From Novosphingobium sp. Gsoil 351 (GTDB lineage: Bacteria > Pseudomonadota > Alphaproteobacteria > Sphingomonadales > Sphingomonadaceae), in the NCBI RefSeq assembly GCF_009707465.1, contig NZ_CP046120.1, positions 2,881,501 to 2,945,500 on the forward strand: a stretch of DNA of 64,000 nucleotides, in the 5' to 3' direction. Shown one piece after another: positions 1-18,412 of this stretch (position 1 is its first letter; every line of letters begins with the position of its first letter). The notes beneath the pieces were generated by a model that was not told where the DNA came from, did no database searches, and saw only the letters and a list, made by a program, of their open reading frames with translations. A program made the position numbers and the translations under genes.

Positions 1-429
1 AAGTTCGTAGGCAGCGCCATCGCGTGCCAGTCCGCCACCGTAGGTTAGCCCAAACGGCACATAGTAGCGCCCGGCTGCGTCGGCCGATCCGCGCTCGATG
101 CGATTGCGCCATGTTGCGCGGCCGCCGGCGACTTCGAAGGCCTCATCGATTGGCTGGAACGCAAAAGCCTCCCCGGCGCGCGTCATGGCCGTCGGCAATC
201 CGGCTCGGTCAATGACGACGTCAGCGGCAAAGGCACGCACCTTGTCCTGCTGCTGATAGCGGTTCTCGATATGGACGCGTCCGCCCGCGCGGATGTCGGC
301 GGTCATTTCGCCATTTACCACGCCGTTGGTGACGATGTCGTAGGCGAGCGTCTCGGCCCTCGCCGGTGCGGCGAGCCCGAGACCCAGCGACGCCGCCAGC
401 ACGATCCGGCGCAAAAAAGGACGCATCAT
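1..429 (-). CDS. Partial exported protein, probably N-terminus of an amidohydrolase
   Basis: Only the first 143 codons are in the window; the gene runs off the left edge. It starts 4 bp after the stop of the epimerase gene, so it is the last visible member of the minus-strand operon that begins with the TonB receptor. Residues 1-26 form a clear signal peptide (Arg-rich start, Ala/Leu core, cleavage near ARAE). The rest is a beta-rich segment (YDIVTNGVVNGEMT, then GGRATWRN and RYYVPFG) resembling the N-terminal domain that precedes the metal-dependent hydrolase barrel in exported sphingomonad amidohydrolases. That assignment rests on memory of the family pattern; no metal-binding motif is visible here. 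Two start ATGs lie back to back (429 and 426). An exported amidase would fit the peptide-degrading context. Confidence 0.5.
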   Translation of the reverse strand, partial: MMRPFLRRIVLAASLGLGLAAPARAETLAYDIVTNGVVNGEMTADIRAGGRVHIENRYQQQDKVRAFAADVVIDRAGLPTAMTRAGEAFAFQPIDEAFEVAGGRATWRNRIERGSADAAGRYYVPFGLTYGGGLARDGAAYEL

Positions 430-433
430 CGGT

Positions 434-1429
434 TCATCCCCAAAGATCCGGAAGGTGTGGACGCGCGACGGTGCCGCGCTGGAAGGTGAAGCCGGGCTGG
501 TTGTCCGCCAGCTGGAACAGCGGGGCGTCGAGATCGACCCAGCGACAGCGCTGGGCGAGCACCATCCCGGGCGCCATGACCAGCGATGGACCACCCATGC
601 ATCCGATCATCAAGTCGAAGCCACGCGCTTGCGCGGCGTCGGCCAGGCGCAGCGCCGCCGTCAAGCCGCCGGCTTTATCGAGCTTGATATTGATCGCCGC
701 GAACCGCCCGGCGGCTTTGTCGAGGTCGGCAATGTCGTCGACCAGTTCGTCGGCACATAGCGGGATCGGCGAGACCCACCCATCGAGCTCGCCTTCCGCA
801 CCGACCGGGATCGGCTGCTCGATCAGTTCCACGCCGAGATCGGATAACTGCGGGGCAAGCTGCTTGAGCTGCGCGGGCGACCAACTTTGGTTCGGATCGA
901 CAATCAGACTCGCCTCGGGCGCGCCACGCCGCGCGCCGGCGATCATCGCCAGCGGATCATCCGCTCCCACCTTCAGCTTGAGCGCGTGTGCGCGTTCGGC
1001 TCGGGCGGACTGCTCGAATTGGTCGGGTGAGCGAATCCCCAGCGTGCGGGCGCTCATGACAGGGTTCGCCGCAACGCCGTTGCGCGCAAACGGATCGCCC
1101 TCGCCGCGTTTAGCCTCGAGGTCCCACAGCGCCGCGTCGATTGCGGAGCGGGCTCCGCCCGCAGGCATGAGGATCAAAAGATCCTCGCGTGTCGCGCCGG
1201 CTTCCACCGCTTCTCGCGCGGCCTCGACATCGCGGCTCATCGTCGCCAACGTCTCGCCGGCATAGGGGACGCCGTGGGCACCGCCGCGGCCGGTGAGTCC
1301 GCTAGTGTCGCTCACCGCGACCTCGATCGTGTCGCACGTGGTTATCGTCGCCCGCGAGATCACGAATGGTTCACGGAATTCCCAGCGCGCGGTGGCGAGC
1401 GACAGCCGCAGCGGACCGCCCGCCCCCAT
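434..1429 (-). CDS. Dipeptide epimerase (enolase superfamily)
   Basis: Predicted 331-residue member of the muconate-lactonizing-enzyme subgroup, L-Ala-D/L-Glu epimerase type, which inverts an alpha-carbon in a dipeptide or acylated amino acid. The barrel signatures are in order: KLKVG (the KxK base pair), VDPNQSW, IEQP and CADE as the Mg-binding acids, and IKLDKAGG with the second catalytic lysine. The ATG at 1429 is chosen because it starts 2 bp beyond the end of the upstream peptidase gene; upstream in-frame starts would overlap that gene. No signal peptide, so cytoplasmic. In its operon it would process dipeptides released by the peptidases. Specificity (Ala-Glu, other dipeptides, or N-acyl amino acids) cannot be read from sequence. 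Confidence 0.85.
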   Translation of the reverse strand: MGAGGPLRLSLATARWEFREPFVISRATITTCDTIEVAVSDTSGLTGRGGAHGVPYAGETLATMSRDVEAAREAVEAGATREDLLILMPAGGARSAIDAALWDLEAKRGEGDPFARNGVAANPVMSARTLGIRSPDQFEQSARAERAHALKLKVGADDPLAMIAGARRGAPEASLIVDPNQSWSPAQLKQLAPQLSDLGVELIEQPIPVGAEGELDGWVSPIPLCADELVDDIADLDKAAGRFAAINIKLDKAGGLTAALRLADAAQARGFDLMIGCMGGPSLVMAPGMVLAQRCRWVDLDAPLFQLADNQPGFTFQRGTVARPHLPDLWG

Positions 1430-1431
1430 TG

Positions 1432-3549
1432 TCAGCGCGTGTACGGGCGGGGCTTCAGCCCGGTCTGCACGGCGGCGAACGACCACAGATCGGTAAACTC
1501 GTCGACCAGCTGCCCTACCGCCTTGCCCTCGCCGTGACCGGCGTCCTGCTCGATGCGCAGCAGCCTGGGTCGCGGACCGAGGTCGGCGGCCTGCAGCGCC
1601 GCAACGTACTTGAAGCTGTGCATGGGCACGACCCGGTCATCGCCAAGCGCCGTGTTGACCAGGACCGCGGGATAGCGCCGGCCCGCCGCGATGTTGTGCA
1701 GGGGCGACCAGCGCAGCAGCCCGGTGAGTTCTCGGGCATCGGCGGGGTCGCCCATTTCCGGAATCCACGTGCGGCCCGAGGTGAACTGCGTAAAGCGTAC
1801 AAGGTCGGTCACTGGCACGCGGGGGATAGCTGCGCCGAACAGCTCGGGATAGGAGTTGATCGTGGCGGCGGCCATCATCCCACCGTTCGATGAGCCGTAG
1901 GCGATTGTCTGGGCAGGCGTCGTCACACCAGTCGCCTGGAGCAAACGTGCGGCAGCGGCGTAGTCCTCGATGCCCTTGAGGTGGCCCTCCTTGATCGCGG
2001 CGCGATGCCATTCCTCGCCCAACTCACCGCCACCGCGGATATGCGCGATCGCGAAAGTGCCGCCGAGCTGCATCCACGCGAACCGGGTCTCGGTGAAGGC
2101 GACGTCGACGCTGAGCCCCCAGCCGCCATAGACCATCAGCATTGTCGGGGCCGGGCGCTTCCCGGCGTCCTTGCGATAAGCAAGCGTGACCGGGATCATC
2201 GTGCCATCGGACGACTTGGCCTGGACTTGCCGCAAGACGAAGTTGCCCGGGTTCCAGTCTGCCTTGGGCCGCGCCACGACAGTCGAAGCCTTGCTCGCCA
2301 AATCAAAGCGATAGAGCGTGGGCGGCATGATAAGCGACGATAGGCTGTAGAAGATGGCCGGTTGGCCGGCGCGGCCTTCGAGCGCCGAGACCACAGTCAA
2401 CGGCGGCAACGCGATCTCGCCGCGGTCGCTAACGTCGAGCCCGTAGCGATGGAGGTGAGAGCGGAGTCCTTCAAGCGAGCGGACAATGACCTCCTCGCTG
2501 GCCAGCACGGCTTGCTGGATGCTGCCAGGGCCGCTTGGCGCGACGGTGACAGGAACCTGCTTGGAGCCGCCGGCGGGATCGAGCGCGACGACACGCCCTC
2601 GGGGCGCACCTTCGCTGGTCACGAAGTACACGCGTCCGTTCCGCGAGCCAATGTAGCGCCAGCTCGCCTTCAGGCCGGTGACGAGCGGGACCGGTCGGGC
2701 ACCGCGATCGTCGAGATCGATCGCAGAAACGTCGCTACGCGATCCATCGGTTGTGCCGAATTCGATGATTAGCCATCGGCCGTCAGTCGGCCGAGGCCAG
2801 AGAATGAGTTCGCCGCCACTTGGGTCGTCGAACAGGCGCGCGTCCTCGCTCTGCGGTGTTCCAAGGCGATGCGCGTAAATCGAAGAGTTAGCTGGGGCAG
2901 CCATGTCGCCGGCCGTCGTTGGATAACGCGTGTAGAAGATCGTTCTACCATCAGCTGACCAGTCGAAGGCGGGGGTGCGGATGCCGTCGAGCGGCAGCTC
3001 GCTGTCGAGGCCGCTGGCTATGTCGATTACATGGAGGCGACGTCGGTCCCCGCCGTTCGCCTGTACGGCGAAGAGCAGTTTGGTGCCGTCGGGTGATGGT
3101 TTCCAGTCGTGGACAACCGCGCTGCCGTTGGCCGAGAGCGCGTTCGGATCGACCAGCACACGCTCGCCGCGCCCATCGCGCATAACAATCACGTTTTGGT
3201 TCTGGAGGCCGCTATTGCGCTCGTAGAAGCTGCGGTTCCCTCGCACCCGCGATGGTGACCGCTTCTCGAAATCCCATGCTCGAACAATTGCGCGACGCAC
3301 GATATCGCGGTTGGGCAATCCGTCCAAATAGCGCCGCGTAAACGCATTTTGCTCGGCGACCCACGCCGCGACTGAAGCGTCCTTGCGGGGGTCGGCCTCG
3401 AGCCAGCGGTACGGGTCGGCGACCTTGCGCTCGAAATGGTCGTCAACCACCGCCACGCGGCGCGTAAGCGGGTACCCAAACGTTTGCGCGGCCAGCGGCG
3501 CGGCGGCGAGCGCCGCCCCCAGAACCAGAAGCGCTCGCCTAACCCCCAT
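1432..3549 (-). CDS. Exported prolyl oligopeptidase (S9A)
   Basis: A 705-residue serine peptidase that cleaves after proline in short peptides. Residues 1-21 are a signal peptide (LLVLGAALAAAPLAAQ), so it is likely periplasmic. The N-terminal part from DPYRWLE onward is the seven-bladed propeller gate. The C-terminal alpha/beta-hydrolase domain has the nucleophile in GSSNGG, the acid in LGDDRVV and the histidine in QDAGHGEGK, giving a complete triad. Length matches the family. It lies 12 bp downstream of the TonB receptor and 2 bp upstream of the epimerase, so receptor, peptidase and epimerase are probably one transcript. S9 relatives beside TonB receptors include lasso-peptide isopeptidases, but no lasso precursor or maturation genes are nearby. 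Confidence 0.93.
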   Translation of the reverse strand: MGVRRALLVLGAALAAAPLAAQTFGYPLTRRVAVVDDHFERKVADPYRWLEADPRKDASVAAWVAEQNAFTRRYLDGLPNRDIVRRAIVRAWDFEKRSPSRVRGNRSFYERNSGLQNQNVIVMRDGRGERVLVDPNALSANGSAVVHDWKPSPDGTKLLFAVQANGGDRRRLHVIDIASGLDSELPLDGIRTPAFDWSADGRTIFYTRYPTTAGDMAAPANSSIYAHRLGTPQSEDARLFDDPSGGELILWPRPTDGRWLIIEFGTTDGSRSDVSAIDLDDRGARPVPLVTGLKASWRYIGSRNGRVYFVTSEGAPRGRVVALDPAGGSKQVPVTVAPSGPGSIQQAVLASEEVIVRSLEGLRSHLHRYGLDVSDRGEIALPPLTVVSALEGRAGQPAIFYSLSSLIMPPTLYRFDLASKASTVVARPKADWNPGNFVLRQVQAKSSDGTMIPVTLAYRKDAGKRPAPTMLMVYGGWGLSVDVAFTETRFAWMQLGGTFAIAHIRGGGELGEEWHRAAIKEGHLKGIEDYAAAARLLQATGVTTPAQTIAYGSSNGGMMAAATINSYPELFGAAIPRVPVTDLVRFTQFTSGRTWIPEMGDPADARELTGLLRWSPLHNIAAGRRYPAVLVNTALGDDRVVPMHSFKYVAALQAADLGPRPRLLRIEQDAGHGEGKAVGQLVDEFTDLWSFAAVQTGLKPRPYTR

Positions 3550-3561
3550 CGCTGCGGGACC

Positions 3562-5838
3562 TCAAAAGTTGCCGGTAAACTTGATGCCGATCTCACGCGG
3601 GCGGATCAGCCCGGTTTGGGCGGGGATGGTTCCGCCCAGCGCCGACTGGCCGGCATAGTAGAAGGTGATGCCGCGCTTGTCGGTAAGGTTCTTACCGTAC
3701 AGCATAACTCCGAACGGCCCGCTCTTTACGCCGATCTGTGCGGCAAAGGTGTCGTAGCCCGGAAACGGCAGATGGCTGATCGTTGGCGTCAGGGCGTAGC
3801 TGTTAAACTGGCTGCTGACATGACTCCAGCTGCCGTTGACGCTAGCCGTCATGTCGTCCGAAAGATCGAATTCGTAAGTGGCCGAGACCGTGGTGTTGAG
3901 CTTGGGCACGTAGGGCAGCCGGTCACCGTCCGCGGCGCCGATGCCTGGCGCGTCGCGGGAGAACTTGGCGTCGGTATAGCTACCCAGTGCCGTCAGATTG
4001 AGCCCGCGCACTGGCCGCAGCGAGAAGGTCCATTCGAGACCCTTACTGACGGCACGACCGACATTGCCGGTGACGTTGTAAGCGACGCCCCCGCTCGGAA
4101 AAGCGACCGTGATCTGAACGTCGCGCCAGTCGATGTAGAACGCAGCGATATCGACCGACAGGAGTCGGTCGAGGAATGTCCCCTTGAGGCCCAGCTCGTA
4201 GCTGATGGTCTTGTCGGAGTCGAACTGGCTAGGAAGACCTGCTGGTGCGTTGGGAATGAACGACTGCGGGCCGCCGGGGCGGTAACCTGAGGCGACACGT
4301 CCATAGATCATCGCGTCCTGGCTGAAGTGGAAGCGTGGCGCGACCGAGAAAGTCCAACTGGTCTCGCCCGACTTCAGGCGAGGGACGATCTGGCCGAGGG
4401 GAACACCGAGGAACGGCCCGCCTTGAATTCCGTCCTGGTGCTGTTTGTTTTCGAACACACGGGCGCCAGCTTCTATGTCGAAGCGCGGCGAGAAGAAATA
4501 GGTCAGGTCGGCATAGCCGGCGATCTCGCGATACCGCGAGAATTGGTTGGCCTGGAGCACCAGCGCACCGCTGGCGCCGCCGAAGGGTGTCGCTACATTC
4601 GCGCCGGTGACCGCGTCCTTGGTGTAATAGTTGGTGAGCGCATCGGTTTTCTCGCGGGTGTAGAAGCCACCCAGTTGCCACTGCAGGCCGCCCTCTTCCT
4701 TGGCGTTCCTGGTGGAGTAGAGCCGGAATTCCTGGCTGATCTTGCTCAGGTCGGTATCGATTATGTAAAACAGCGTGGTATTTGGCCGTCCAAACAGCAG
4801 CCCGCCGAACACCTGGCCGTAGAGCGGCACGTCATTGGTGCGGAAGTTGTCGAGCTTGCCGTAGCTGGTGATCGACTGAATCCCGACACCGCCGAAGTCG
4901 TATGTCAGGTTGCCGATGTAGAGCTGCGCTTTGACCCGCCCGGGCTGGGGTAGGAAGGTGTCGAGGTTGTAGCCCTTGAGCGGCGCGAACTGATTGCTGG
5001 GCTGCGTCAGGCCATTGACCTCGATCGCGTCGAAGCCATCGGTCTTGAGGTCCTGGTAAATCGCGGTCAGGCGGATGCTGAGATTGTCGGCAGGCGTTAC
5101 CAGCAGCGAGGCACGGCCGCCATAACGGGTGAAGCCGTTAGCGTCCTGGCGGCGGCCGAGCTGGTTGTCGATCCAGCCAGGGGCGTACTGATAGTAGCCC
5201 GAAACGCGCAGCGCCGCGACGTCGGAGGCAACGGGCACGTTGACATAGCCGCGTCCCACCGCGCCCATATCGCCGTGGGCGATGTCGAACATACCAAAAT
5301 CGAACCCGGCGGCGAGACGCGCGGGGTTCGGCGCTTGGGTCACATACTTGATCAAGCCGCCCTGCGCGGTCGCCCCGTAAAGCGAACCCTGCGGTCCGCG
5401 CAGCACTTCCACCCGATCGAGGTCCCACGGCTCGAAATCGGTGGCGAAGCTTGCGTTGCCGACCGAGAAGCTGAGCGGCGCCTCATCCACCACGCTGGCG
5501 ACGGTCGCCGCGCCGCTGCCGGTGTTGAGGCCGCGGATGATGATCTGGTTGCCGGCGCCGGCGATGCTCCCGGCCCGGATGAAGCTGATCCCGGGAACGG
5601 TACGGGCAAGATCCTGGATGTCCTGCACCTGTTGGCGCTCGAGCTCGTCGCCTGCGACCGCGGAGATGCTCAGCGCGACGTCCTGGATGCGCTCTTCGTA
5701 CTTGTTGGCGGTGACGATTATCTCGCCCGGTTGCGCATCGTCATCGCCGGCGGGCTGTTCGGCTTGGGCCAGCGCCATGGTGGGCAAGCCCGCACACAGA
5801 GCTGCTCCGGTCAACAGAAGTATCTTCGCGCCACGCAT
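3562..5838 (-). CDS. TonB-dependent outer-membrane receptor
   Basis: A 758-residue receptor for active import across the outer membrane, powered by TonB-ExbB-ExbD. The start at 5838 has a GGGAGG ribosome site and gives a signal peptide ending near TMALAQA. The TonB-box-like GEIIVTANKYEE follows, then the plug (residues about 45-170, including IIIRGLNTG and VLRGPQGSLYGA) and the beta barrel ending in an aromatic C-terminus (KFTGNF). As first gene of the operon with a secreted prolyl oligopeptidase and a dipeptide epimerase it most likely imports an oligopeptide; the ligand is inferred from neighbours only. A GntR-type operator candidate lies about 80 bp upstream. Confidence 0.93.
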   Translation of the reverse strand: MRGAKILLLTGAALCAGLPTMALAQAEQPAGDDDAQPGEIIVTANKYEERIQDVALSISAVAGDELERQQVQDIQDLARTVPGISFIRAGSIAGAGNQIIIRGLNTGSGAATVASVVDEAPLSFSVGNASFATDFEPWDLDRVEVLRGPQGSLYGATAQGGLIKYVTQAPNPARLAAGFDFGMFDIAHGDMGAVGRGYVNVPVASDVAALRVSGYYQYAPGWIDNQLGRRQDANGFTRYGGRASLLVTPADNLSIRLTAIYQDLKTDGFDAIEVNGLTQPSNQFAPLKGYNLDTFLPQPGRVKAQLYIGNLTYDFGGVGIQSITSYGKLDNFRTNDVPLYGQVFGGLLFGRPNTTLFYIIDTDLSKISQEFRLYSTRNAKEEGGLQWQLGGFYTREKTDALTNYYTKDAVTGANVATPFGGASGALVLQANQFSRYREIAGYADLTYFFSPRFDIEAGARVFENKQHQDGIQGGPFLGVPLGQIVPRLKSGETSWTFSVAPRFHFSQDAMIYGRVASGYRPGGPQSFIPNAPAGLPSQFDSDKTISYELGLKGTFLDRLLSVDIAAFYIDWRDVQITVAFPSGGVAYNVTGNVGRAVSKGLEWTFSLRPVRGLNLTALGSYTDAKFSRDAPGIGAADGDRLPYVPKLNTTVSATYEFDLSDDMTASVNGSWSHVSSQFNSYALTPTISHLPFPGYDTFAAQIGVKSGPFGVMLYGKNLTDKRGITFYYAGQSALGGTIPAQTGLIRPREIGIKFTGNF

Positions 5839-5902
5839 GCTCGGCCTCCCACACTGCGCCACGCCGGTCGCGACGGCCCGCTGGCGTTTCGGCACAGCTT
5901 AG

Positions 5903-5930
5903 TCATGTTTTTCGTTATAACAAGTGGCAA
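5903..5930. promoter_or_regulatory. Candidate GntR operator in the TonB receptor / Ere divergent promoter
   Basis: CGTTATAACA at 5913-5922 contains the perfect palindrome GTTATAAC. On the minus strand it is preceded by TTGCCA (5930-5925), a good -35 hexamer, placing the palindrome in the promoter spacer; the -10 is poor (around ACATGA, 5908-5903). The same layout recurs at 11705-11732, with near-identical flanks (TGGCAA followed by TTGTGCG). It can serve both the receptor operon and the plus-strand operon starting at 5988. Confidence 0.6.
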
Positions 5931-5987
5931 AGTGCTTGTGCGGCTCCGGATGGGGTGGCAGCGTTGCAGCAAGAGTGGGAGAGGTAC

Positions 5988-7340
5988 GTGCGCAAAAACA
6001 TCTGGATGGGGGTCATCGTGGCTTGCTTGGTCTGCGCATCGGCACAAGCGCAGGTCGTCGAACCGAACGCGCCGCCATCACTTCCTCCGCCGCAAGCCAT
6101 CGTCGAATGGCTCGCAGCCAACGCCGCGCCAATTGACGTGAAGCAGCATTTGCCCGCAGGCCCCGAGGCGGCGGCAATCGATAGCATCACCTCCGGTGCG
6201 CGAGTGATCGGCCTGGGCGAAAGCAACCATGGCAACCGCGAGCCGCTGGCCTACCGCAATCGCCTGATCCGCTACCTCGTCGAGCGCCGCGAACTGACCG
6301 CTGTCGCGCTCGAGAGCGGCTTCGCCGAGTCGCGCCAGCTCTATGACTACGTGCTCGGCGGGCCAGGTGATCCGGCGGCGCTGCTCGACACCGGGCTTAC
6401 GCACGGCTTTGGCAACTTGCGCGAAAACCTCGAGCTGATCACATGGCTGCGGGCGTGGAACGCACAGCACTCCGGGCGTCCGGTGCGGCTCTATGGGATC
6501 GACCGCTCGACGATCCAGTCGGCACCGCCCGGAGTCAGGCGGCGCTCGGTGGTGCTCGACCACGTCGCACGCTATCTCGAGCGCACAATCCCGCGAGCCT
6601 CGGCCCCCGCTCGCATCGAGCTCATGCGTTTTGCCGACCGCTTCACAGAGAACGATTATCAAGGCTATGCGGCCGAAGACCGGACCTTGCTCGACCGCAC
6701 GCTGGCTACCATCCAAGCGATGTTCGTGACGCACCGTTCGGAGATGATCCGGCGAAGCGGCGCCGACGACTTTGCCTGGGCGCAGCGCGAGGCCTACGAT
6801 GCGGCGCGTTTGCCCGAGCTGTTCCGCATCTGGAACGTCGATGGCAGTGATCTCGGCAAGCTGATCCAGGTCATCGAAGTCAGGGACCAGGCGATGGCCG
6901 ATCACGTCTTGTGGGCGCTGCGACGCGAGGGGCCGCGCGGGCGCGTGCTCCTGTTTCAAGCCAACGGTCATGTCACCAAGGCTCCGATGATCGGCAGCGT
7001 GATGCGCAACTTCGCGCGCCAGCCGATCCTTACCGGGATCGCCTTGCGCCGTGCGCTGGGCGGCAAATATCGGACCATCGCCACGGTCTCGAGCCGCGGC
7101 CGCGAGGCAAGCGACGATGCATCGGGCAGCCTCGATCGCGCCTTCGCCGCTGCCCGTCGCTCGCCGAGTCTGCTCAGCCTCCGCCAGGGTCGGCCATCTG
7201 GTTGGTGGCGCAAGGTACAATCGGCCTCGCAGGGTGACACCCGGCTCGACGACTTTGCCCCGGCGCGGGCCTTCGACGGGCTGCTGTATTTTGACCGTTT
7301 GACGCCGGTGACCCCGCTGCGTCCACGGACCACGCCATGA
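5988..7340 (+). CDS. Exported erythromycin-esterase-family protein
   Basis: Predicted 450-residue protein of the Ere superfamily, whose known members hydrolyse macrolide lactones while many others have unknown substrates. GLGESNHGN near residue 80 carries the Glu and His of the family active site, followed by a conserved ALESGF segment and later QANGHV with a second histidine. The GTG at 5988 is preferred because GGGAG lies 6 bp upstream and it gives a short signal peptide (IVACLVCASAQAQ), so the product is likely periplasmic. The stop overlaps the start of the PLP enzyme gene by 4 bp. Its place in a peptide locus suggests hydrolysis of an ester or lactone in the imported substrate rather than antibiotic resistance; this is inference. 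Confidence 0.8.
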   Translation: MRKNIWMGVIVACLVCASAQAQVVEPNAPPSLPPPQAIVEWLAANAAPIDVKQHLPAGPEAAAIDSITSGARVIGLGESNHGNREPLAYRNRLIRYLVERRELTAVALESGFAESRQLYDYVLGGPGDPAALLDTGLTHGFGNLRENLELITWLRAWNAQHSGRPVRLYGIDRSTIQSAPPGVRRRSVVLDHVARYLERTIPRASAPARIELMRFADRFTENDYQGYAAEDRTLLDRTLATIQAMFVTHRSEMIRRSGADDFAWAQREAYDAARLPELFRIWNVDGSDLGKLIQVIEVRDQAMADHVLWALRREGPRGRVLLFQANGHVTKAPMIGSVMRNFARQPILTGIALRRALGGKYRTIATVSSRGREASDDASGSLDRAFAAARRSPSLLSLRQGRPSGWWRKVQSASQGDTRLDDFAPARAFDGLLYFDRLTPVTPLRPRTTP

Positions 7341-11168: not shown

Positions 11169-11698
11169 GCGGTCGGCTCCAACTCGAGTTCGATGGCGGG
11201 CGCGATCGCAAGCGAGGTAACCACTGGCGATGCGCCTGCGGCTTGGTCTACAAGCTTGCCGAGAACGTTTGCGGGTTCCGACGAACGCATCCGCAAACCG
11301 ATACGCAGATCCCGAATGCCGCCCCGCGCCTCTCCGCCGAATTCAAAAAATGCGGCTGGGTCCATCCACGCCGAGATCCGCATGTCCAGACCTTCGATAC
11401 GCAACCCGCGCAGCGCCGCATGGGCGGTGATCGTGACCGAGAGGCTCGCGCCCACCGCCGCGAGCAGCAGCTCTGCCGGGTCGGCCGCATCGCCCTCGCC
11501 TCCGAAGTCCGCCGGCTCGTCGATACGCACGAGATGCCCGCTGCCCGTACGGCCATGATTAACGAACCCGCGCTCGCGCGAAAGCTCGACGAAAACCCGT
11601 TCGGGCGGGGCTTCGCCAGCAGCGACGCGGACTTGATAGTCCGCCACTGCCCGCGCGAGGTGCTTCGGCGTGGAATGCGCAGCAGGCGAAGAGACCAT
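11165..11698 (-). CDS. OsmC-like protein without cysteines
   Basis: A 177-residue OsmC/Ohr-fold protein. The family core is present: GSGHLVRIDEP, then DPAELLLAAVGASL leading into the long central helix, and the C-terminal segment AAGASPVVTSL. Ohr/OsmC peroxidases have one Cys in each of the last two segments; here both positions are Ala and Ser, and the whole protein has no Cys, so it cannot be a thiol peroxidase. It is first in a unit with the M19 dipeptidase. The -10 element (TACACT, 11710-11705) ends only 7 bp before the ATG, so the mRNA may be leaderless. Confidence 0.82.
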   Translation of the reverse strand: MVSSPAAHSTPKHLARAVADYQVRVAAGEAPPERVFVELSRERGFVNHGRTGSGHLVRIDEPADFGGEGDAADPAELLLAAVGASLSVTITAHAALRGLRIEGLDMRISAWMDPAAFFEFGGEARGGIRDLRIGLRMRSSEPANVLGKLVDQAAGASPVVTSLAIAPAIELELEPTA

Positions 11699-11704
11699 TC
11701 GCCT

Positions 11705-11732
11705 AGTGTAGTTTTGTTATAACAGATGGCAA
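11705..11732 (-). promoter_or_regulatory. Promoter of the OsmC-dipeptidase unit with embedded GntR operator candidate
   Basis: Minus strand: -35 TTGCCA (11732-11727), 16-bp spacer, -10 TACACT (11710-11705). The spacer contains the perfect 10-bp palindrome TGTTATAACA (11715-11724), the best copy of the motif in the locus. A repressor bound there would block polymerase directly. Confidence 0.65.
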
Positions 11733-11745
11733 GTGGGTTGTGCGA

Positions 11746-13152
11746 CTAGAGGTCAAATCGGGCGAACATCCGCCGTCCAAGCAACAGCGCGCCCCCGGCC
11801 AGCGAGGTGGCCAGCGCGATCATTCCCATGACCGACGCCTTGTCGCCTTCGAACGCGACTGCGCCCAGCTGACCGCTCAGCCATGCGCCGAGCCCGATCG
11901 CCGCGCCTTGCGAGCCGATCGCCAGCGTCGCGTAGCGCGCCGGCGCGAGGCGGGTCGATGCGGCCATTCCGGCGGGCGAATAAAGCAGCTCGCTCGCCGC
12001 GATCGCCATGATGCTCGCCGCTACCCATAGCGGGCTGGCAAGACCCTTCTCCGCAGTGGTTCGAGCGGCGGCAACCAGCGGGAGGAAGCCTATGGCCATG
12101 AGCAGCAACGCTGCGGCGATATGCTGAACGGTCGACCAGCTGCTTCCCGGTCCGCCCCGCTTCCACCAGCGCAGCAGCAGCGGCGTCAGGATCATGATCG
12201 TAATCGGGTTGAGCGCCGTGAACCAGGCGGGCGGTATTACAAAACCCGATACGTCGCGCGCCACGAACCGAGCGGTGAACAGGCTGACAAAGCCATAGGA
12301 CTGGAAGGAGAAGGTCGAGCAGAGCACGAGCAGCGCCAGTAGCAGCGCGACCGAGATCACGAACGGTTTGTCATCAGCGCTAGGATCTCGCGTGTCGTCG
12401 TGAGCCATGCCGCCGCGCTCGGTAAAGGGGCTGATATACCTGTCATTTAGAGCCAATGCGGTGACGATGGCGATGGCCATTCCCATGGCCGACCCGGCAA
12501 AGGCCCAAGCCCAACCATAGTTCTGCGCCAGCCAGCCCCCGAGCAGAACCGAAAGCAGCCCACCGATGTTGATGTAGAGAAAGAAGGTCGTGAAGGCAGC
12601 GGTTCGCGCAGCCGCGTCGGGGTGGGGCAGACGCCCGACGATGACCGTCAGGATCGGCTTGAACAGACCATTGCCGAGCGCGATGGCGGCGACCCCGAGG
12701 TAGAAGCACATCGACAGCAGGAGATAGCGCGTCGCAGCCGCGCCCTTAAGCCCCGCCGGATCAAACGTCGCCATCGTCAACCCGGCGCCAGCTACGTGAT
12801 CGAGCAGCCGGAAGCCGTCGCCCAGCACAAGCCAGGGCAGCGTTGCCGCGACCGCCAGCAGGCTATGGCCGGCCACCAACGCCGCGGCGCCAAGACGCAA
12901 CGACCGCCCCATGCCGATCACCCGATCCGCCGCCCAACCCCCGACGATCGGGGTCACCTGCACGGCGAGTAGGTAGACGCCAAAGAAGCGCAGCGACTGT
13001 GGCGCGCTCCACCCTAACCCGCCGCTTGCGACCGGCGCGGAGGCGAACAGCGCGAGCAGCGTGAAGGTGGTGTAGTAGCTGTAGCGCTCCCAGAATTCGA
13101 TCGCCGACAGCCGCACCACTGCGGTGCGGGCGAAGGTGGCCGCATCGCTCAC
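11746..13152 (-). CDS. POT/PTR2-family proton-coupled peptide transporter
   Basis: A 468-residue inner-membrane permease of the major facilitator POT family, which imports di- and tripeptides with protons. EFWERYSYY at the first helix is the family's ExxERFxYY signature, and about twelve to fourteen hydrophobic helices follow. The GTG at 13152 overlaps the stop of the CocE-type hydrolase (GTGA) and is preferred because it starts just before helix 1; the upstream frame lies inside the neighbour. The overlap makes hydrolase and permease one unit. It is the obvious inner-membrane step between the TonB receptor and the cytoplasmic dipeptidases. Sphingomonad microcystin loci also carry a PTR2-type permease, but no other mlr genes are here. 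Confidence 0.9.
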   Translation of the reverse strand: MSDAATFARTAVVRLSAIEFWERYSYYTTFTLLALFASAPVASGGLGWSAPQSLRFFGVYLLAVQVTPIVGGWAADRVIGMGRSLRLGAAALVAGHSLLAVAATLPWLVLGDGFRLLDHVAGAGLTMATFDPAGLKGAAATRYLLLSMCFYLGVAAIALGNGLFKPILTVIVGRLPHPDAAARTAAFTTFFLYINIGGLLSVLLGGWLAQNYGWAWAFAGSAMGMAIAIVTALALNDRYISPFTERGGMAHDDTRDPSADDKPFVISVALLLALLVLCSTFSFQSYGFVSLFTARFVARDVSGFVIPPAWFTALNPITIMILTPLLLRWWKRGGPGSSWSTVQHIAAALLLMAIGFLPLVAAARTTAEKGLASPLWVAASIMAIAASELLYSPAGMAASTRLAPARYATLAIGSQGAAIGLGAWLSGQLGAVAFEGDKASVMGMIALATSLAGGALLLGRRMFARFDL

Positions 13153-14996
13153 GCAGCGCACGCCGGCAGGATCAGGGCCGATGCGCAGGCGCCGCCGAGA
13201 TGGACCGCATTTCTCGCGGTGCGCCATTCGGTGCCCGTAAAGTTGTCGCCGCCGGTGTTGAGGTTGCGGTCAAACACCGGAAAATAGCTCGAACTCAGCG
13301 ACAGCCGAAGCGCATTGCCTGCCGGAACCTCGATCGCGGCATGCCACAGATCGATCGTCACGCGGTAAATTTCGCCCGGTTTCATCATCTCCGGGCAATC
13401 CAGCCCGGTACGGTAGCGCATTCGAGCGACCCCGTGAGTCACATTGATCGAGCAGCCTTTGCTGTCGACCTCGCTCAGAACGGCGACGAAGTCCGTGTCC
13501 GGCGCCGAGGACGAAACATAGAGCTCGAGCTCGATTGCTCCGGCCAGTGCCAACGATGCCTCGAGCGGGGGCATGGTGAAGGAGATGACATCGTCGCGGA
13601 CCTCGATCGCGGAACGATCGGCGTAGCCCCCGCCGAGGAGATCGACCGGGGTCTCGGGGGGCTCGGACGGGGTCGGATCGTCGGGATCGTAAAGGTATTC
13701 GACGGACGCCTCGGCGACTGGCTTGTCCCAAACAAGCGCTCCCTCTCCGGCCAAGTAAAGCCGGCGAGCAACTACCCCGTGCGGTGGCCAGGATTGCGCC
13801 TCCTGCCAGACGTTTCGGCCGGCGAGGAAATAGCGCACTCGCGGCCAGGCTTCGATCTCGGCTCCGTGGTCCAGCAGCCAGTGCGTAAACCAGCCCACCA
13901 GATCGCGATAGTATGGGTGCCGGGTGTCCCCGAAGTGCCGCGCACCGAAACGCGTATCCGCTTCGCACTCGGCGTAGCCGCTGTGCGCGGCAGGTGTGAA
14001 CCAGAGATACTGGTGTCTGGCGACCTCGGCGCTGTCGGCGTTGGCCTGAAACAGCCGGAAGTTGTCGAAGCTGCTGCCGCCCCGCTCGAGCGGACCGGTA
14101 ACAAAGAGGTGCGGTGCGGCGAAACGATCCGCTTCGGTGAGGAAACCTTGGTCGGCGAAGTACTGAGAACACGGCTCAGCCGAGGCGCGCATCTGCGCCG
14201 CGAACTCGCTCGGCGCCGCCCCGCTGCGGTCGAGCAGGGTATCGACCGGCAGGGTCTTCAGGTGACTGTCGTAATCGACCGGCGGTTGGCGGACCGGTTG
14301 CGTCTCGTAGGCGTCAGCCCAACGCGCCTGGTACCAGGCCTCGCGATCGATCCCGGCCGGCGGCGCAAACGAGACTTTGGGTACGAAGTCGCGGTACCAT
14401 CCAAACATCATCCGCAGCAGCGAGACGCCGCCCTGCAGATAGGCGCCGTTGCGCGTCTGGCCGCCGCCATAGCTGCCGTCGAACATGATCACGCCGCAGC
14501 GATGCGCGGGATGGCGCATTGCCGCGATCTTGGCGGCGGTTTCGCCGGTATAGGACGAGCCGAGTGTCCCGACACGGCCGTTGCACCATGTCTGACTTGC
14601 GATCCATTCCACCGTATCTAAGCCGTCGAGCCGGTCGATGCCCGAACAGGCGACGAATTCGCCTTCGGATTCGTGACGCCCGCGCACGTCCTGGATCGCG
14701 TAGACGATGCCTTGCTCGGGCAACAGCGCGGGCATCGCGGTGGGAGCGTTGTTCTTGTTGTACGGGGTGCGGACAAGCACGACCGGCAACGGCAGGTCCG
14801 CGCCCAGCGGAATGTGGAAGTCGGTCGAGAGGCGCACGCCGTCGCGCATCGGGATGAACACGCTGCGCACACGGCGCGTCGCAAAGCGCGGCGCGAGGCC
14901 CTCGAATAGGAACGGCCGCTCAGGATCGAAGCGCGCGCTGCGCGGCTGTAGCGCATCCTCGGCACCAGCCACGAAACTCTCCGCTCGAAGACTCAT
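13149..14996 (-). CDS. CocE/NonD family hydrolase (X-Pro dipeptidyl-peptidase S15 type)
   Basis: A 615-residue serine hydrolase with the S15 layout: alpha/beta-hydrolase domain, helical cap, and C-terminal jelly roll from about residue 400. FIPMRDGVRLSTD and VRTPYNK open the domain, GSSYTGET holds the nucleophile, and LWFTPAAHSGY carries a histidine. Family activities include release of X-Pro dipeptides, cocaine or alpha-amino-ester hydrolysis, and beta-lactam acylation. The start at 14996 is the first ATG after the divergent promoter region; no signal peptide is seen. Coupled to the POT transporter, a peptidase or amino-ester hydrolase role is likely. Confidence 0.85.
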   Translation of the reverse strand: MSLRAESFVAGAEDALQPRSARFDPERPFLFEGLAPRFATRRVRSVFIPMRDGVRLSTDFHIPLGADLPLPVVLVRTPYNKNNAPTAMPALLPEQGIVYAIQDVRGRHESEGEFVACSGIDRLDGLDTVEWIASQTWCNGRVGTLGSSYTGETAAKIAAMRHPAHRCGVIMFDGSYGGGQTRNGAYLQGGVSLLRMMFGWYRDFVPKVSFAPPAGIDREAWYQARWADAYETQPVRQPPVDYDSHLKTLPVDTLLDRSGAAPSEFAAQMRASAEPCSQYFADQGFLTEADRFAAPHLFVTGPLERGGSSFDNFRLFQANADSAEVARHQYLWFTPAAHSGYAECEADTRFGARHFGDTRHPYYRDLVGWFTHWLLDHGAEIEAWPRVRYFLAGRNVWQEAQSWPPHGVVARRLYLAGEGALVWDKPVAEASVEYLYDPDDPTPSEPPETPVDLLGGGYADRSAIEVRDDVISFTMPPLEASLALAGAIELELYVSSSAPDTDFVAVLSEVDSKGCSINVTHGVARMRYRTGLDCPEMMKPGEIYRVTIDLWHAAIEVPAGNALRLSLSSSYFPVFDRNLNTGGDNFTGTEWRTARNAVHLGGACASALILPACAA

Positions 14997-15031
14997 CAGT
15001 TGCGTATCAATCTCACGGATCGATCTTGCCG

Positions 15032-15051
15032 TGTTATTACATATGACGCAA
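15032..15051. promoter_or_regulatory. Candidate GntR operator in the CocE / DPP divergent promoter
   Basis: TGTTATTACA at 15032-15041 differs by one base from the palindrome at 11715. On the minus strand TTGCGT (15051-15046) precedes it in the same relation as TTGCCA at the other sites. The 63-bp gap between divergent starts leaves room for only one control region for both operons. Confidence 0.5.
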
Positions 15052-15059
15052 GATGGGGT

Positions 15060-17474
15060 ATGCGACGAGCTAAAGGCGCCTCTGGCAAGGTACAAAAACA
15101 GGGCACGAGCGGCACGCTCGAGATACCAACTGTCACTTTGCCGGAGCTTGAGCGCGCCGCACGGTTGATGCGCAATCACCCCGACACCGCGATCCGCAAC
15201 GCGCGGGTAGTCCCCCGCTGGACTCGGGACGGCGCGAGTTTCTGGTACGTCCGCGAGACCGACCGGGGCCACGATCATGTGCGGGTCGATGCGCGCACCG
15301 GAAGCAAGACGATCGCCTTCGATCACCGCGCGCTGGCGGAGGCCCTAGGGCGCGCCGGAGTGCCGGACGCTTCGCCCGACACGCTTGCCATTGCCGTGAT
15401 CGAAAACAAAACAGTGCTCGTCGTCGCGGACGAGCGAACCTATCGATGGACGCCGGGCGAGCCTTGCGTGGTCGAGCCGGATCCTCCCGTCGGTGAGATC
15501 CCCTCCCCTGACGGCAGGTTGGTGGTGTTCCGGCACACCGGGAACCTCTGGCTGCGCGACCTCGGCACCGGTATCGAACGCCCGCTGACTTGCGACGGAC
15601 AGCTCCACTTCGGCTATGGCTTGCCGTCCGATCGCTATGGCCAGGATAAGCTGGTCCGCGAGCGTGAGGGAATGCCAATTCCTCCAGTTCAGACCTGGTG
15701 GTCTCCTGATGGCAGCCACATCGTCAGCGCACGACTGGATCAGCGTCACCTCGCGCCATACTACTTTCTCGAAAACGCACCGCGCGACGGAAGCTTTCGC
15801 CCCAAGCTCCACGAGGTTCGGCTGCCGCTGATGGGGGAGCCGGGCGGCAGGCTCGACTGGTGGGTGATTGACGTCGCCACCGGTGCAAAGCGCCCGATCC
15901 CCTTCCCGACCGAGCGGATGATCGCCGCCAACAACGGGATCGACGATCTCAAGATCGCCTGGGGCGACGACGGGCGGACGCTACTCGCCATATCCGGCCT
16001 GACCGGCCTTGTCGGTGCCGAAGCGTTCGCTGTCGATCTCGCCAGTGGCGAAGTCCGCACCATCCTGACGGATCGCTCCACGCCCGGGCACCCCCTAGTG
16101 GCCGGCGGCTATGGAGACCCGGTAGCGCGCTTCATCCGCGGAGGGAGTGAACTATTGTGGTATGCCGAGCATGACGGTTGGGGTCACATTGACCGCTACG
16201 ACGTCGCCAGCGGTGATCTGCTCAATCGGATAACCCAGGGCGCGTGGCTTGTTCGCGACATAGTCGCCGTCGATGAGGCGCGAGGGCTGATGTGGTTCAC
16301 CGCGATGGGCCGCGAACCCGGCAGCCCGTACGACCGCTACCTCTATCGCACCCGACTCGATGGTGCCGGGCTCGAACTTATGTCTCCCGAGCCAGGCGAT
16401 CACTTAATCATCGATCCTACCGGCAGCGCGCTGGTCTTCGACGGTGCAGGTCCGACCGAGACCGTCGCGCCCGACTTCGCGAGCTATGCTTACGACATCT
16501 CAAGCGTATCGATCCCGACGCGTTCAGTCCTCCGACGCTCGTCCGATGGAGCCGTGATCGCGGAGTTCGAGCATGCCGACGACTCGGGGCTACGCGCCGC
16601 CGGTTACCGCCCGCCCGAGGAAATGGTGGTGCCCAGCGCCGACGGTCGTCATGACCTGTGGGGCCTGGTTTACCGCCCGTCCAACTTTGATCCGGCGCGC
16701 ACGTATCCGGTCGTCGATGTCCAGTATGCCAACCCCGCGGTCGCGCGCACTCCGCGAAACCATGCTATGGCGGCGACCTACGTGGGCACCGCGGCCACCC
16801 CCGCCGCACTGGCAGAACTGGGTTTTATCGTCGTGTGCGTGGACGGGTGCGGCACGCCCTATCGCTCCGCGGCGTTCTCACGCGCGCCCGAGGGCTTCCT
16901 TGCCACCATGGGACTTGAGGATCACATCGCGTTCATCCACGGCGTCGCCGCTCGCGACGCCTCGCTCGATCTGTCGCGGGTCGGCATCGCCGGCCAGTCC
17001 TACGGGGGCTATGCTGTGCTGCGAGCGCTGATAGAATTTCCCGACTTTTTCAAGGTTGGCGTTGCCGGAGCGCCGCAGACCGGCTTCCACAATATGGCAG
17101 CCGAAGCCGTTCTTCACGCTTACGAGGGCCCACCCGACTACGGGGGCGGCGCGACGCTTCGGCCTTTCCCCGCCGCAATGCCAACCAACTTCATGGCATT
17201 CGATTGCGCAGCACAGCTCGACCGGATCCAGGCACCGCTGCTGATCTTTGCTGGCGAGCAGGACGAGAATGTGTATCCCGGCAGCATCGTGCAGTTCATG
17301 GACGCAGCTATTCGCCAAAACCGCAACATTGAGTGGGTGTGGATGCCCAACAACGCGCATGACGGGCTGTATACGCCCTACGCCCTGCGGCGCAGCCTCG
17401 AATTTCTGACGCGGCACCTCCAGGGTCGGCTTCTGCCCGACCGCCTCCCTCCGTTTCCTCCGCCCGCACGATGA
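15060..17474 (+). CDS. Dipeptidyl-peptidase IV-type serine peptidase (S9B)
   Basis: An 804-residue peptidase with an eight-bladed propeller (residues about 40-530) and a C-terminal hydrolase domain. The triad is complete: nucleophile in GQSYGGYA, acid in GEQDENVYP and histidine in NNAHDGLY. The family removes X-Pro or X-Ala dipeptides from N-termini. The ATG at 15060 is chosen as the first in-frame ATG after the operator; ribosome-site support is weak and the start may be further in. No clear signal peptide is present, so it probably acts on peptides already imported. The last codons overlap the iminopeptidase start by 4 bp. Confidence 0.88.
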   Translation: MRRAKGASGKVQKQGTSGTLEIPTVTLPELERAARLMRNHPDTAIRNARVVPRWTRDGASFWYVRETDRGHDHVRVDARTGSKTIAFDHRALAEALGRAGVPDASPDTLAIAVIENKTVLVVADERTYRWTPGEPCVVEPDPPVGEIPSPDGRLVVFRHTGNLWLRDLGTGIERPLTCDGQLHFGYGLPSDRYGQDKLVREREGMPIPPVQTWWSPDGSHIVSARLDQRHLAPYYFLENAPRDGSFRPKLHEVRLPLMGEPGGRLDWWVIDVATGAKRPIPFPTERMIAANNGIDDLKIAWGDDGRTLLAISGLTGLVGAEAFAVDLASGEVRTILTDRSTPGHPLVAGGYGDPVARFIRGGSELLWYAEHDGWGHIDRYDVASGDLLNRITQGAWLVRDIVAVDEARGLMWFTAMGREPGSPYDRYLYRTRLDGAGLELMSPEPGDHLIIDPTGSALVFDGAGPTETVAPDFASYAYDISSVSIPTRSVLRRSSDGAVIAEFEHADDSGLRAAGYRPPEEMVVPSADGRHDLWGLVYRPSNFDPARTYPVVDVQYANPAVARTPRNHAMAATYVGTAATPAALAELGFIVVCVDGCGTPYRSAAFSRAPEGFLATMGLEDHIAFIHGVAARDASLDLSRVGIAGQSYGGYAVLRALIEFPDFFKVGVAGAPQTGFHNMAAEAVLHAYEGPPDYGGGATLRPFPAAMPTNFMAFDCAAQLDRIQAPLLIFAGEQDENVYPGSIVQFMDAAIRQNRNIEWVWMPNNAHDGLYTPYALRRSLEFLTRHLQGRLLPDRLPPFPPPAR

Positions 17475-18412
17475 GCGCGCGCAGCCTTTATCGGGTCGAG
17501 CCCTATGCTTGCGGAATGCTCGCGGTTGGACAGGGGCACGAGCTCTATTGGGAGCGCTGCGGAACGCCGGGAGGCAAGCCGGCGGTGTTCCTTCACGGGG
17601 GCCCCGGTTCCGGTTCCTCGATTGAGTCACGCGGACTCTTCGATCCGGATCGCTACGATCTCCTGCTGTTCGATCAACGCGGCGCGGGCCGGTCGACCCC
17701 CCATGCCAACCTGGTCGCCAACACCACCTGGGACCTGGTCGAGGACATCGAGCGCCTGCGCCGCCACGCGGGTGTCGAAGAGTGGCTCGTGTTCGGCGGC
17801 TCCTGGGGCTCGACCCTTGCGCTCGCCTACGCCGAAGCACATCCGGCGCGCGTGACCGAGCTGGTCTTGCGTGGCGTTTTCACCGGGCGCCAAGCCGAAC
17901 TCGACTGGATCTATCGCGGCGGCGCGGACCGGCTCTTTCCCGAAGCTTGGCGTAATTTCATCGAAATCCTCACCCCGGAGGAGCGCGCTGACCCGTGCGC
18001 TGGCTACTACGGACGGCTGACAGCCGCCGATCAGACAATACAGCTGGCTGCGGCACGCCGCTGGAGCGAGTGGGAAGCGCGCATCGTGCAACTCGAACCC
18101 GACGCGGCCCTCGTCGAAAGCTATACCGAAGAAGAGTTCGCTGTAGCCCTGGCGCGGATCGAGGCCCACTACATGGTCAATCGGCTGTGGCTTACGGAAG
18201 GCCAACTGCTGCGTGAAGCTGGCAGGCTCTGCGAAATCTCCGGCATTGTCGTCCAAGGCCGCTACGATGCCTGCACTCCCCCGCGCACAGCATACGATCT
18301 GTGCCAGGTCTGGCCCCGGGCGCGTCTGGAAATTGTTACCGCAGGCCATCGCTTCGACGAGCCCCCAATTCTCAACGCTTTGATTTCGGCGACCGATGAA
18401 TTTGCTGAGTAG
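17471..18412 (+). CDS. pip: Prolyl iminopeptidase
   Basis: A 313-residue alpha/beta-hydrolase (family S33) that removes N-terminal proline. LHGGPGSGSS is the oxyanion-hole signature, FDQRGAGRSTPH the following strand, GGSWGS the nucleophile elbow, and AGHRFDEP holds the histidine. This is a full-length match to the family. It is translationally coupled to the DPP-IV-type gene. With prolyl oligopeptidase, X-Pro dipeptidase and DPP activities in the same locus it would complete conversion of proline-rich peptides to free amino acids. Confidence 0.92.
   Translation: MSARSLYRVEPYACGMLAVGQGHELYWERCGTPGGKPAVFLHGGPGSGSSIESRGLFDPDRYDLLLFDQRGAGRSTPHANLVANTTWDLVEDIERLRRHAGVEEWLVFGGSWGSTLALAYAEAHPARVTELVLRGVFTGRQAELDWIYRGGADRLFPEAWRNFIEILTPEERADPCAGYYGRLTAADQTIQLAAARRWSEWEARIVQLEPDAALVESYTEEEFAVALARIEAHYMVNRLWLTEGQLLREAGRLCEISGIVVQGRYDACTPPRTAYDLCQVWPRARLEIVTAGHRFDEPPILNALISATDEFAE

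What the first reader, a model, noticed from the sequence alone, without database searches (positions are those of the whole stretch)
1..18412. Single-locus system for import and breakdown of proline-rich peptides with modified residues
Thirteen-plus adjacent genes form a logical chain: TonB receptor and secreted prolyl oligopeptidase outside, POT permease at the inner membrane, then CocE/X-Pro, DPP-IV-type, prolyl iminopeptidase and M19 dipeptidase inside. Four members are odd for a plain peptide locus: dipeptide epimerase, N-methyl amino acid oxidase with the covalent-FAD cysteine segment, an exported Ere-like hydrolase and a PLP beta-family enzyme. Together they suggest a substrate with proline, epimerised or D-residues, N-methyl groups and perhaps an ester or lactone bond, such as a cyclic depsipeptide. 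The gene functions follow from family motifs; the substrate is inference.
Basis: partly seen in the sequence, partly recalled or inferred. Interest (0 to 1): 0.78.

Follow-up and report, generated by a model that had tools for sequence, protein, structure and literature searches.

The report
Sphingomonad locus for D-residue and proline peptides
A bacterium that looks like a sphingomonad carries a rarely found gene block that most likely imports short peptides and takes them apart, including peptides with mirror-image and proline-type residues, and the block is one variant of a recurring family of such blocks.

Summary
The gene block is real: 14 adjacent genes, from an exported amidohydrolase cut by the window edge to prolyl aminopeptidase. 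The DPP-like enzyme lacks the Glu-Glu motif of dipeptidyl peptidase IV, the CocE enzyme fails the X-Pro model, and the M19 enzyme lacks the first HxD metal motif.

New is the context. Epimerase and TonB receptor belong to clades tied to a recurrent set (epimerase, TonB receptor, POT, DgcN, beta-lactamase-fold hydrolases, some with M19), seen on Croceicoccus, Novosphingobium and Sphingobium plasmids. The window locus is a variant: no DgcN or beta-lactamase-fold hydrolase, but proline peptidases and an N-methyl-amino-acid-type oxidase. Relatives of epimerase, oxidase and POT (49-69%) share exact contig lengths on three metagenome contigs, so this trio seems conserved elsewhere, though POT is in 1 of 195 genomes of the genus. 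The same genome has a second epimerase-oxidase-M19 locus with DgcN.

Best reading: scavenging of short peptides with D- (probably acidic) and proline-type residues. N-methyl residues are plausible; ester bonds and a depsipeptide substrate are not shown. New variant of a known kind.

The parts
1..429 (-). N-terminal part of an exported amidohydrolase (Amidohydro_1); the gene continues upstream of the window to about G000:C1:2879917
   Evidence: PDB relatives include proteins labelled Xaa-Pro Dipeptidase, arginine carboxypeptidase and ochratoxinase; signal-peptide-like N-terminus judged by eye
434..1429 (-). dipeptide epimerase of the L-Ala-D/L-Glu / DgcA group
   Evidence: PF13378/PF02746; NF042940 342.1 bits, below its cut-off 400; PDB 4gfi, 1jpd; ISR, KLK, VDPN, EQP, ADE, IKLDK and DLD motifs
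1432..3549 (-). exported prolyl oligopeptidase (S9A)
   Evidence: PF02897, PF00326; PDB 1yr2 E 2.4e-133; GSSNG nucleophile motif
3562..5838 (-). TonB-dependent receptor; start probably the ATG at 5838 (by eye)
   Evidence: PF07715; clade with receptors of epimerase loci, support 99/96
5839..5987 (.). divergent promoter region between the receptor and the Ere-like gene (inferred)
   Evidence: gene calls; no GntR-type operator recognised
6006..7340 (+). exported Ere-like hydrolase
   Evidence: PF05139 129.2 bits; GESNHG motif; EreA/B/D models far below cut-off
7337..8263 (+). PLP beta-family enzyme, cysteine synthase / beta-cyanoalanine synthase type
   Evidence: PF00291; PDB 6pmu E 1.4e-88; SVKDR
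8253..9413 (-). N-methyl-L-tryptophan oxidase / monomeric sarcosine oxidase type flavoenzyme
   Evidence: NF008425 396.6 bits against cut-off 257; conserved Cys
9419..10126 (-). GntR/FCD regulator
   Evidence: PF07729, PF00392
10197..11168 (-). M19 dipeptidase-like enzyme, no signal peptide seen, first-site HxD absent
   Evidence: PF01244 233.1 bits; alignment; PDB 3id7, 2i5g
11165..11647 (-). OsmC-like protein
   Evidence: PF02566; start
11746..13152 (-). POT peptide permease; start at 13152, as in the protein database (468 aa), overlaps the CocE stop
   Evidence: PF00854; TIGR00924 189.1 against cut-off 130.2; relatives of 47-72% whose contig lengths also appear for epimerase or oxidase relatives
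13149..14996 (-). CocE/NonD (S15-type) hydrolase; start probably near 14996 (by eye)
   Evidence: TIGR00976 268.1 against cut-off 66.3; NF003780 45.6 against 642; cocaine esterase as best PDB match
15168..17474 (+). S9B DPP-like serine hydrolase without the Glu-Glu motif
   Evidence: PF00930, PF00326
17471..18412 (+). prolyl aminopeptidase (S33)
   Evidence: TIGR01249 375.3 against cut-off 259.75

Best explanation
A chromosomal locus for scavenging short peptides that carry D-residues (probably acidic at the position acted on by the epimerase) and proline-type residues. Inferred order of events: the TonB receptor brings the peptide into the periplasm; exported prolyl oligopeptidase, amidohydrolase and Ere-like hydrolase trim it; the POT permease imports di- and tripeptides; in the cytoplasm the CocE, DPP-like, prolyl aminopeptidase and M19 enzymes release amino acids, the epimerase turns an L-Xaa-D-Xaa dipeptide into the L,L form so that ordinary peptidases can cut it, and the flavin oxidase oxidises a secondary-amine residue (N-methyl or cyclic imino acid). 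Judged by eye: signal-peptide-like N-termini. Inferred: substrates, direction of flow, and a single shared pathway. The locus is a variant of a recurrent epimerase/TonB-receptor/POT locus in which DgcN and beta-lactamase-fold hydrolases are absent and proline peptidases plus the oxidase are present.
For: Gene families and motifs. POT: of 9 non-own POT genes found in 298 family genomes, 7 have an epimerase, 7 a DgcN, 7 a related TonB receptor (one of these at only 28%) and 4 an M19 in the 16-20 kb fetched around each. Epimerase tree: clade of three, support 100/97, with two DgcN-linked epimerases, one of them in a POT/TonB-receptor/M19/M15 locus; a separate clade of 21 rows has none of the partners looked for. 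TonB receptor tree: clade of 15, support 99/96; 12 of the other 14 have an epimerase within 12 kb. Of 7 plasmid loci fetched by receptor similarity alone, 5 hold an epimerase. A second locus in the same genome has TonB receptor, DgcN, epimerase, oxidase, M19 and M32.
Against: No substrate or expression evidence. The oxidase mostly stands apart from epimerases: 1 of the 80 named loci (several are short) and 0 of 10 non-own family oxidase loci have one nearby. The window POT is closest, within the family sample, to the POT of a locus without epimerase (L117, 37%). Prolyl oligopeptidase and prolyl aminopeptidase are in 0 of 30 related loci searched. The DPP-like and CocE enzymes lack the tested hallmarks of proline specificity. 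The M19 enzyme lacks a metal motif and could have another activity. The cell has a proline dehydrogenase. No shared operator was recognised between the two divergent promoter regions. The contig-length coincidences were not verified by reading those contigs.
Confidence: 0.55

Rival explanations
1. Peptidoglycan-peptide scavenging: the epimerase works on L-Ala-D-Glu from murein stem peptides, and the locus mainly recovers cell-wall peptides, the proline enzymes being general oligopeptide trimmers.
For: Closest solved relatives include an L-Ala-D/L-Glu epimerase. The closest neighbouring locus, L113, places an epimerase 52% identical beside DgcN, POT, a D-Ala-D-Ala dipeptidase (M15), M19 and a receptor of the same clade. 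DgcN belongs to catabolism of D-acidic amino acids (PMC12363236, passages). G000 has two epimerase matches, neither in the partner-free clade.
Against: No muramidase, amidase or gamma-glutamyl peptidase was recognised among the window locus genes; it has prolyl oligopeptidase and prolyl aminopeptidase instead, and murein has no proline (recalled). It also has an N-methyl-amino-acid type oxidase.
Confidence: 0.2
2. A loose amino-acid and peptide island: peptide genes and unrelated free-amino-acid genes (oxidase, PLP enzyme, OsmC) sit together by accident of acquisition, without one shared substrate.
For: The oxidase is mostly not near epimerases elsewhere (1 of 80; 0 of 10). The upstream 20 kb holds several other amino-acid genes. 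POT is in 1 of 195 genus genomes.
Against: Oxidase, POT and epimerase relatives coincide on three other contigs by length, and epimerase with oxidase recurs in the second own locus and in Brevundimonas. The oxidase lies in a run of six minus-strand genes with POT and M19.
Confidence: 0.15
3. The oxidase acts on cyclic imino acids (proline, pipecolate or modified prolines) released by the proline peptidases, so that no N-methyl residue is involved.
For: Best solved relatives are monomeric sarcosine oxidases, which are known to take L-proline slowly (recalled). The locus contains prolyl oligopeptidase and prolyl aminopeptidase.
Against: The genome already has a proline dehydrogenase. The oxidase is in the group that NCBIfam names N-methyl-L-tryptophan oxidase.
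Confidence: 0.1

Closest known systems
Epimerase-POT-TonB receptor-DUF1611 loci of Croceicoccus, Novosphingobium and Sphingobium plasmids (annotated gene by gene; no description seen among the papers listed)
   Same: Epimerase and TonB receptor (receptor 35-37% to the window's); POT permease in two of these three; M19-type dipeptidase in one; Ere-like gene in other, unnamed relatives
   Different: The window lacks DgcN and beta-lactamase-fold serine hydrolases; it has proline peptidases, an N-methyl-type oxidase, a GntR regulator and a PLP enzyme
D-glutamate catabolism by DgcN and DgcA (NCBIfam names; PMC12363236, passages)
   Same: Epimerase of the DgcA group; one DgcN in the same genome, at the second locus
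   Different: No DgcN in the window locus; the window epimerase is below the DgcA cut-off
L-Ala-D/L-Glu epimerase (PDB 1jpd, 4gfi)
   Same: Catalytic and metal motifs and the DxD motif (roles recalled)
   Different: Below the NCBIfam cut-off; TonB receptor/POT neighbourhood
N-methyl-L-tryptophan oxidase (SolA) and monomeric sarcosine oxidase
   Same: Cut-off met; covalent-FAD cysteine
   Different: Placed in a peptide locus
Microcystin-type degradation loci (mlr, recalled) and the Variovorax plasmid locus with M81
   Same: The Variovorax locus has TonB receptor (33%), epimerase, beta-lactamase family protein, MFS and FAD oxidoreductase
   Different: No M81 among the window locus genes; none found in this genome, but that search's control rang nowhere

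Membership tests
Recurrent epimerase/TonB receptor/POT locus (defined here) | TonB receptor in the locus clade | tested here: met
   99/96 clade of 15
Recurrent epimerase/TonB receptor/POT locus (defined here) | epimerase in a partner-linked clade | tested here: met
   100/97 clade with L113 and L114
Recurrent epimerase/TonB receptor/POT locus (defined here) | POT permease | tested here: met
   TIGR00924 met, but the window POT is closest to that of L117 (37%), a locus without epimerase, and about 30% to the others
Recurrent epimerase/TonB receptor/POT locus (defined here) | DgcN (DUF1611) and beta-lactamase-fold hydrolase within the locus | tested here: not met
   none among the locus genes; the one DgcN match of the genome is about 190 kb away
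N-methyl-L-tryptophan oxidase (NF008425) | curated cut-off | tested here: met
   396.6 against 257
N-methyl-L-tryptophan oxidase (NF008425) | covalent-FAD cysteine | tested here: met
N-methyl-L-tryptophan oxidase (NF008425) | activity on N-methyl amino acids | not testable with these tools
   needs the purified enzyme
L-Ala-D/L-Glu epimerase (NF011708) and DgcA (NF042940) | curated cut-offs | tested here: not met
   220.9 against 343 and 342.1 against 400
Dipeptide epimerases of the enolase superfamily | KxK, metal ligands, second lysine, DxD (motif roles recalled) | tested here: met
Dipeptidyl peptidase IV | Glu-Glu motif that holds the substrate N-terminus (recalled) | tested here: not met
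Xaa-Pro dipeptidyl-peptidase (NF003780) | curated cut-off | tested here: not met
   45.6 against 642
Prolyl aminopeptidase (TIGR01249) | curated cut-off | tested here: met
   375.3 against 259.75
Prolyl oligopeptidase S9A | PF02897 propeller and S9 domain, similarity to solved enzymes | tested here: met
Erythromycin esterase (EreA/B/D models) | curated cut-offs | tested here: not met
   at most 43.5 against 750-800; the broad family PF05139 is met
M19 membrane dipeptidase | first-site HxD metal motif (recalled) | tested here: not met
   PF01244 itself 233.1 against 26
Lasso peptide isopeptidase (NF033523) | curated cut-off | tested here: not met
   31.5 against 400 for the DPP-like protein

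The most novel reading that the evidence does not exclude
The locus is a complete route for eating a class of non-ribosomal peptides that combine D-acidic, N-methyl and proline-type residues (for example cyanobacterial or fungal peptides). It would be one member of a widespread family of sphingomonad D-peptide utilisation loci, built like polysaccharide utilisation loci, for which my searches showed no description, and in which Ere-like proteins act as peptide-side hydrolases and not as drug-resistance enzymes.
Probability: 0.2. Interest if true: 0.75.

Novelty: new variant of a known kind. Interest (0 to 1): 0.48.

Why it matters
If right, sphingomonads have modular, patchily distributed loci for peptides that ordinary peptidases cannot cut. 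That would explain part of their capacity to degrade non-ribosomal peptides, give some TonB receptors and Ere-like proteins a testable substrate class, and make the physiological role of N-methyl-tryptophan-type oxidases testable.

Tried and rejected
Lasso-peptide isopeptidase for the DPP-like gene: rejected, 31.5 bits against 400. Microcystin-type (mlr) locus: no M81 among the window locus genes and none found in the genome, but that control rang nowhere, so this stays open; mlrA was not tested. Macrolide resistance for the Ere-like gene: EreA/B/D models far below cut-off. Oxidase replacing proline dehydrogenase: not needed, one is present. Shared GntR operator in the two divergent promoter regions: nothing convincing. 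Same locus in the genus: a POT relative (query P0125, E 1e-60) in 1 of 195 genomes, own only; window POT in 1 of 149; oxidase in 1 of 149 at E 1e-40. Plasmid searches with POT, DPP and oxidase: every record below 60% identity; the best identities among the rows listed were 30.8%, 34.2% and 47.4%. The 33 epimerase loci L140-L172, taken down the ranking, are not a clean control for POT, because POT-bearing loci had been fetched before; they are used only to show that many epimerases stand alone or with DgcN (DgcN in 11 of 33).
Full report
OBSERVATION. Window 1-18412 holds 14 adjacent genes, in order: amidohydrolase (cut by the window edge), epimerase, prolyl oligopeptidase, TonB receptor (minus); Ere-like, PLP enzyme (plus); oxidase, GntR, M19, OsmC, POT, CocE (minus); DPP-like, prolyl aminopeptidase (plus). 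The window is G000:C1:2881501-2945500 of a 3.8 Mb one-contig genome. Its taxon is not named by any search. That it is a sphingomonad is inferred: the receptor's best plasmid relatives are Croceicoccus, Novosphingobium and Sphingobium, and a genome of the same family, G430, has an oxidase contig of 78214 bases, the length of a named Sphingomonadales MAG contig. By eye, the TonB receptor, prolyl oligopeptidase, Ere-like protein and amidohydrolase begin with signal-peptide-like segments and I saw none on the others. Two divergent promoter regions (about 5839-5987 and about 14997-15167) could serve most of the locus (inferred); no common operator was recognised.

ENZYMES. The oxidase passes the N-methyl-L-tryptophan oxidase cut-off, and its cysteine is aligned in 25 of 26 rows including the window; the rows come from loci that I chose, and two of them (L055, L133) are probably the same contig. 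The epimerase is closest to L-Ala-D/L-Glu epimerases and a similar unnamed enzyme among solved structures, keeps the catalytic, metal and DxD motifs, but is below the DgcA and L-Ala-D/L-Glu epimerase cut-offs. Of 7 other epimerases scanned, L114, L149 and L155 pass the DgcA cut-off and L113 (364.6), L122 (364.5), the second own copy (382.4) and L177 (299.5) do not. The prolyl oligopeptidase and prolyl aminopeptidase are well supported. The DPP-like and CocE enzymes are serine hydrolases of the right superfamilies without the tested marks of X-Pro specificity. The M19 enzyme lacks the first HxD motif, as do four of the seven full-length M19 relatives aligned (L113, L122, L125, L127; L117 has a partial motif, L120 and L175 the full one). 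The PLP enzyme is nearest beta-cyanoalanine synthase among solved structures.

A RECURRENT LOCUS. In 298 family genomes, 10 have a POT match at E 1e-30 or better, own included. Around the 9 others (16-20 kb fetched), 7 have an epimerase, 7 a DgcN (DUF1611), 7 a related TonB receptor (6 of them at 35% or more) and 4 an M19. Named examples are plasmids of Croceicoccus marinus, Novosphingobium sp. EMRT-2 and Sphingobium yanoikuyae (the last without an annotated POT but with a dipeptidase), in the order serine hydrolase, epimerase, POT, TonB receptor, DUF1611, hypothetical protein, serine hydrolase (the last hydrolase of the Novosphingobium record comes). A Variovorax plasmid has TonB receptor, epimerase, beta-lactamase family protein, MFS, M81, aminotransferase, RidA and FAD oxidoreductase. 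The 7 plasmid loci were taken from the 15 listed hits (848 records matched); H2, H6 and H7 were skipped as apparent near-duplicates and H11-H15 as weaker. Of the 7, 5 hold an epimerase.

WINDOW AS A MEMBER. In a tree of 59 epimerase rows (58 different) the window copy groups with L113 and L114, support 100/97; L113 is a DgcN/POT/TonB-receptor/M19 locus with a D-Ala-D-Ala dipeptidase. A separate clade of 21 rows has none of the partners looked for (POT, DgcN, M19, beta-lactamase-fold, oxidase, Ere-like, TonB receptor of this kind) within 12 kb. In a tree of 33 receptors the window receptor is in a 15-row clade, support 99/96, of which 12 of the other 14 have an epimerase within 12 kb; seven of those 12 loci had been fetched because of their epimerase or POT, so the 5 of 7 plasmid loci are the cleaner figure. 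Weaker point: the window POT is closest, in the family sample, to that of L117 (37%), whose locus has TonB receptor, M19, M3, DUF885 and a CocE relative (30%) but no epimerase. The Ere-like gene has 3 non-own matches among 298 genomes; all 3 lie beside DgcN and a beta-lactamase-fold hydrolase, 2 of the 3 with an epimerase in the stretch, and those 2 are near-identical loci in one genus.

PROLINE PART. A search of 30 loci (L113-L132, L173-L179, L023, L103, L104) with the four window enzymes at E 1e-10 found CocE relatives in 2 (L117, L128), a DPP relative in 1 (L132), and prolyl oligopeptidase and prolyl aminopeptidase in none. Among the epimerase loci, L158 has a prolyl-aminopeptidase-like gene (35%) and L150 a CocE-like one (25%).

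VARIANT TYPE CONSERVED. For contigs of at least 10 kb the oxidase-POT coincidences are 4 against 0.011 expected by jittering lengths, oxidase-epimerase 3 against 0.032, and POT-epimerase 7 against 0.014; one of those 7 (16573) has differing source labels and may be chance; coincidences below 10 kb (1722, 1675) were not counted. These contigs could not be read here. A POT relative is in 1 of 195 genomes of the genus, own only, so the locus is patchy and probably acquired (inference).

SECOND LOCUS. G000:C1 about 3,062,000-3,083,400 (L103, L104) has M20, M32, esterase, beta-lactamase-fold hydrolase, TonB receptor, DgcN, epimerase (44% to the window copy), Leu/Phe/Val-type dehydrogenases, oxidase (48%), AsnC, DAO, an M19 split over two frames, and a second TonB receptor. 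It has the one DgcN match of the genome. A Brevundimonas MAG locus shares M32, esterase, epimerase, DgcN, beta-lactamase-fold hydrolase, TonB receptor and oxidase, so epimerase with oxidase recurs. Against this, 1 of the 80 named oxidase loci (several of them short) and 0 of 10 non-own family oxidase loci have an epimerase nearby.

LITERATURE. Searches returned capped lists; I saw titles and abstract starts, and none describes this locus family. [quoted passage not shown] In PMC7142613 (passages) some sphingomonad TonB transporters have amino-acid gene context, and the word epimerase does not occur in the main text.

VERDICT. The D-residue part gains support from context; the proline part rests on two well-placed enzymes; the N-methyl part on one enzyme family; the depsipeptide part has no direct evidence.

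Noticed in passing
window 40030-46580: Low-GC stretch (0.58-0.62) with no ORF over 157 aa, a 165-nt direct repeat pair (41226, 43751; 91%) and a 24-nt perfect inverted repeat (42307, 43395); looks decayed or mobile.
   Followed up: no
G000:C1:3080227-3081152 (L104 10228-11153): The M19 gene of the second locus is split over two reading frames; real decay or assembly error.
   Followed up: partly
L105 (upstream of the window): Two more amidohydrolases, BAAT-type hydrolase, aminotransferase, FAD-linked oxidase, and a Leu/Phe/Val-type dehydrogenase 56% identical to the one beside the Croceicoccus epimerase locus: the catabolic region may extend upstream.
   Followed up: partly
L177 16111-24996 (Variovorax paradoxus plasmid): Epimerase, beta-lactamase family protein, MFS, M81, aminotransferase, RidA and FAD oxidoreductase behind a related TonB receptor; resembles microcystin-type degradation genes (resemblance recalled).
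   Followed up: no
P0155 (contig length 252400): A POT relative whose precomputed domains include an amidohydrolase, on a contig whose length also appears for an epimerase relative: possible POT-amidohydrolase fusion.
   Followed up: no
L032, L035, L039, L047, L049, L051, L053, L056-L058, L063, L066: In 12 of the 80 named oxidase loci, all Bradyrhizobium, a PLP beta-family gene (35-37% to the window's) lies within about 6 kb of the oxidase.
   Followed up: no
window 18561-22661: Separate unit: carboxymuconolactone-decarboxylase-like protein, another TonB receptor and a luciferase-like monooxygenase.
   Followed up: no
window 434-18412 against 50000-64000: Mean third-position GC is 0.78 in the locus genes and 0.86 in genes of 50-64 kb; other stretches of the genome (L103, L104, L105, L109) are near 0.78.
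   Followed up: no
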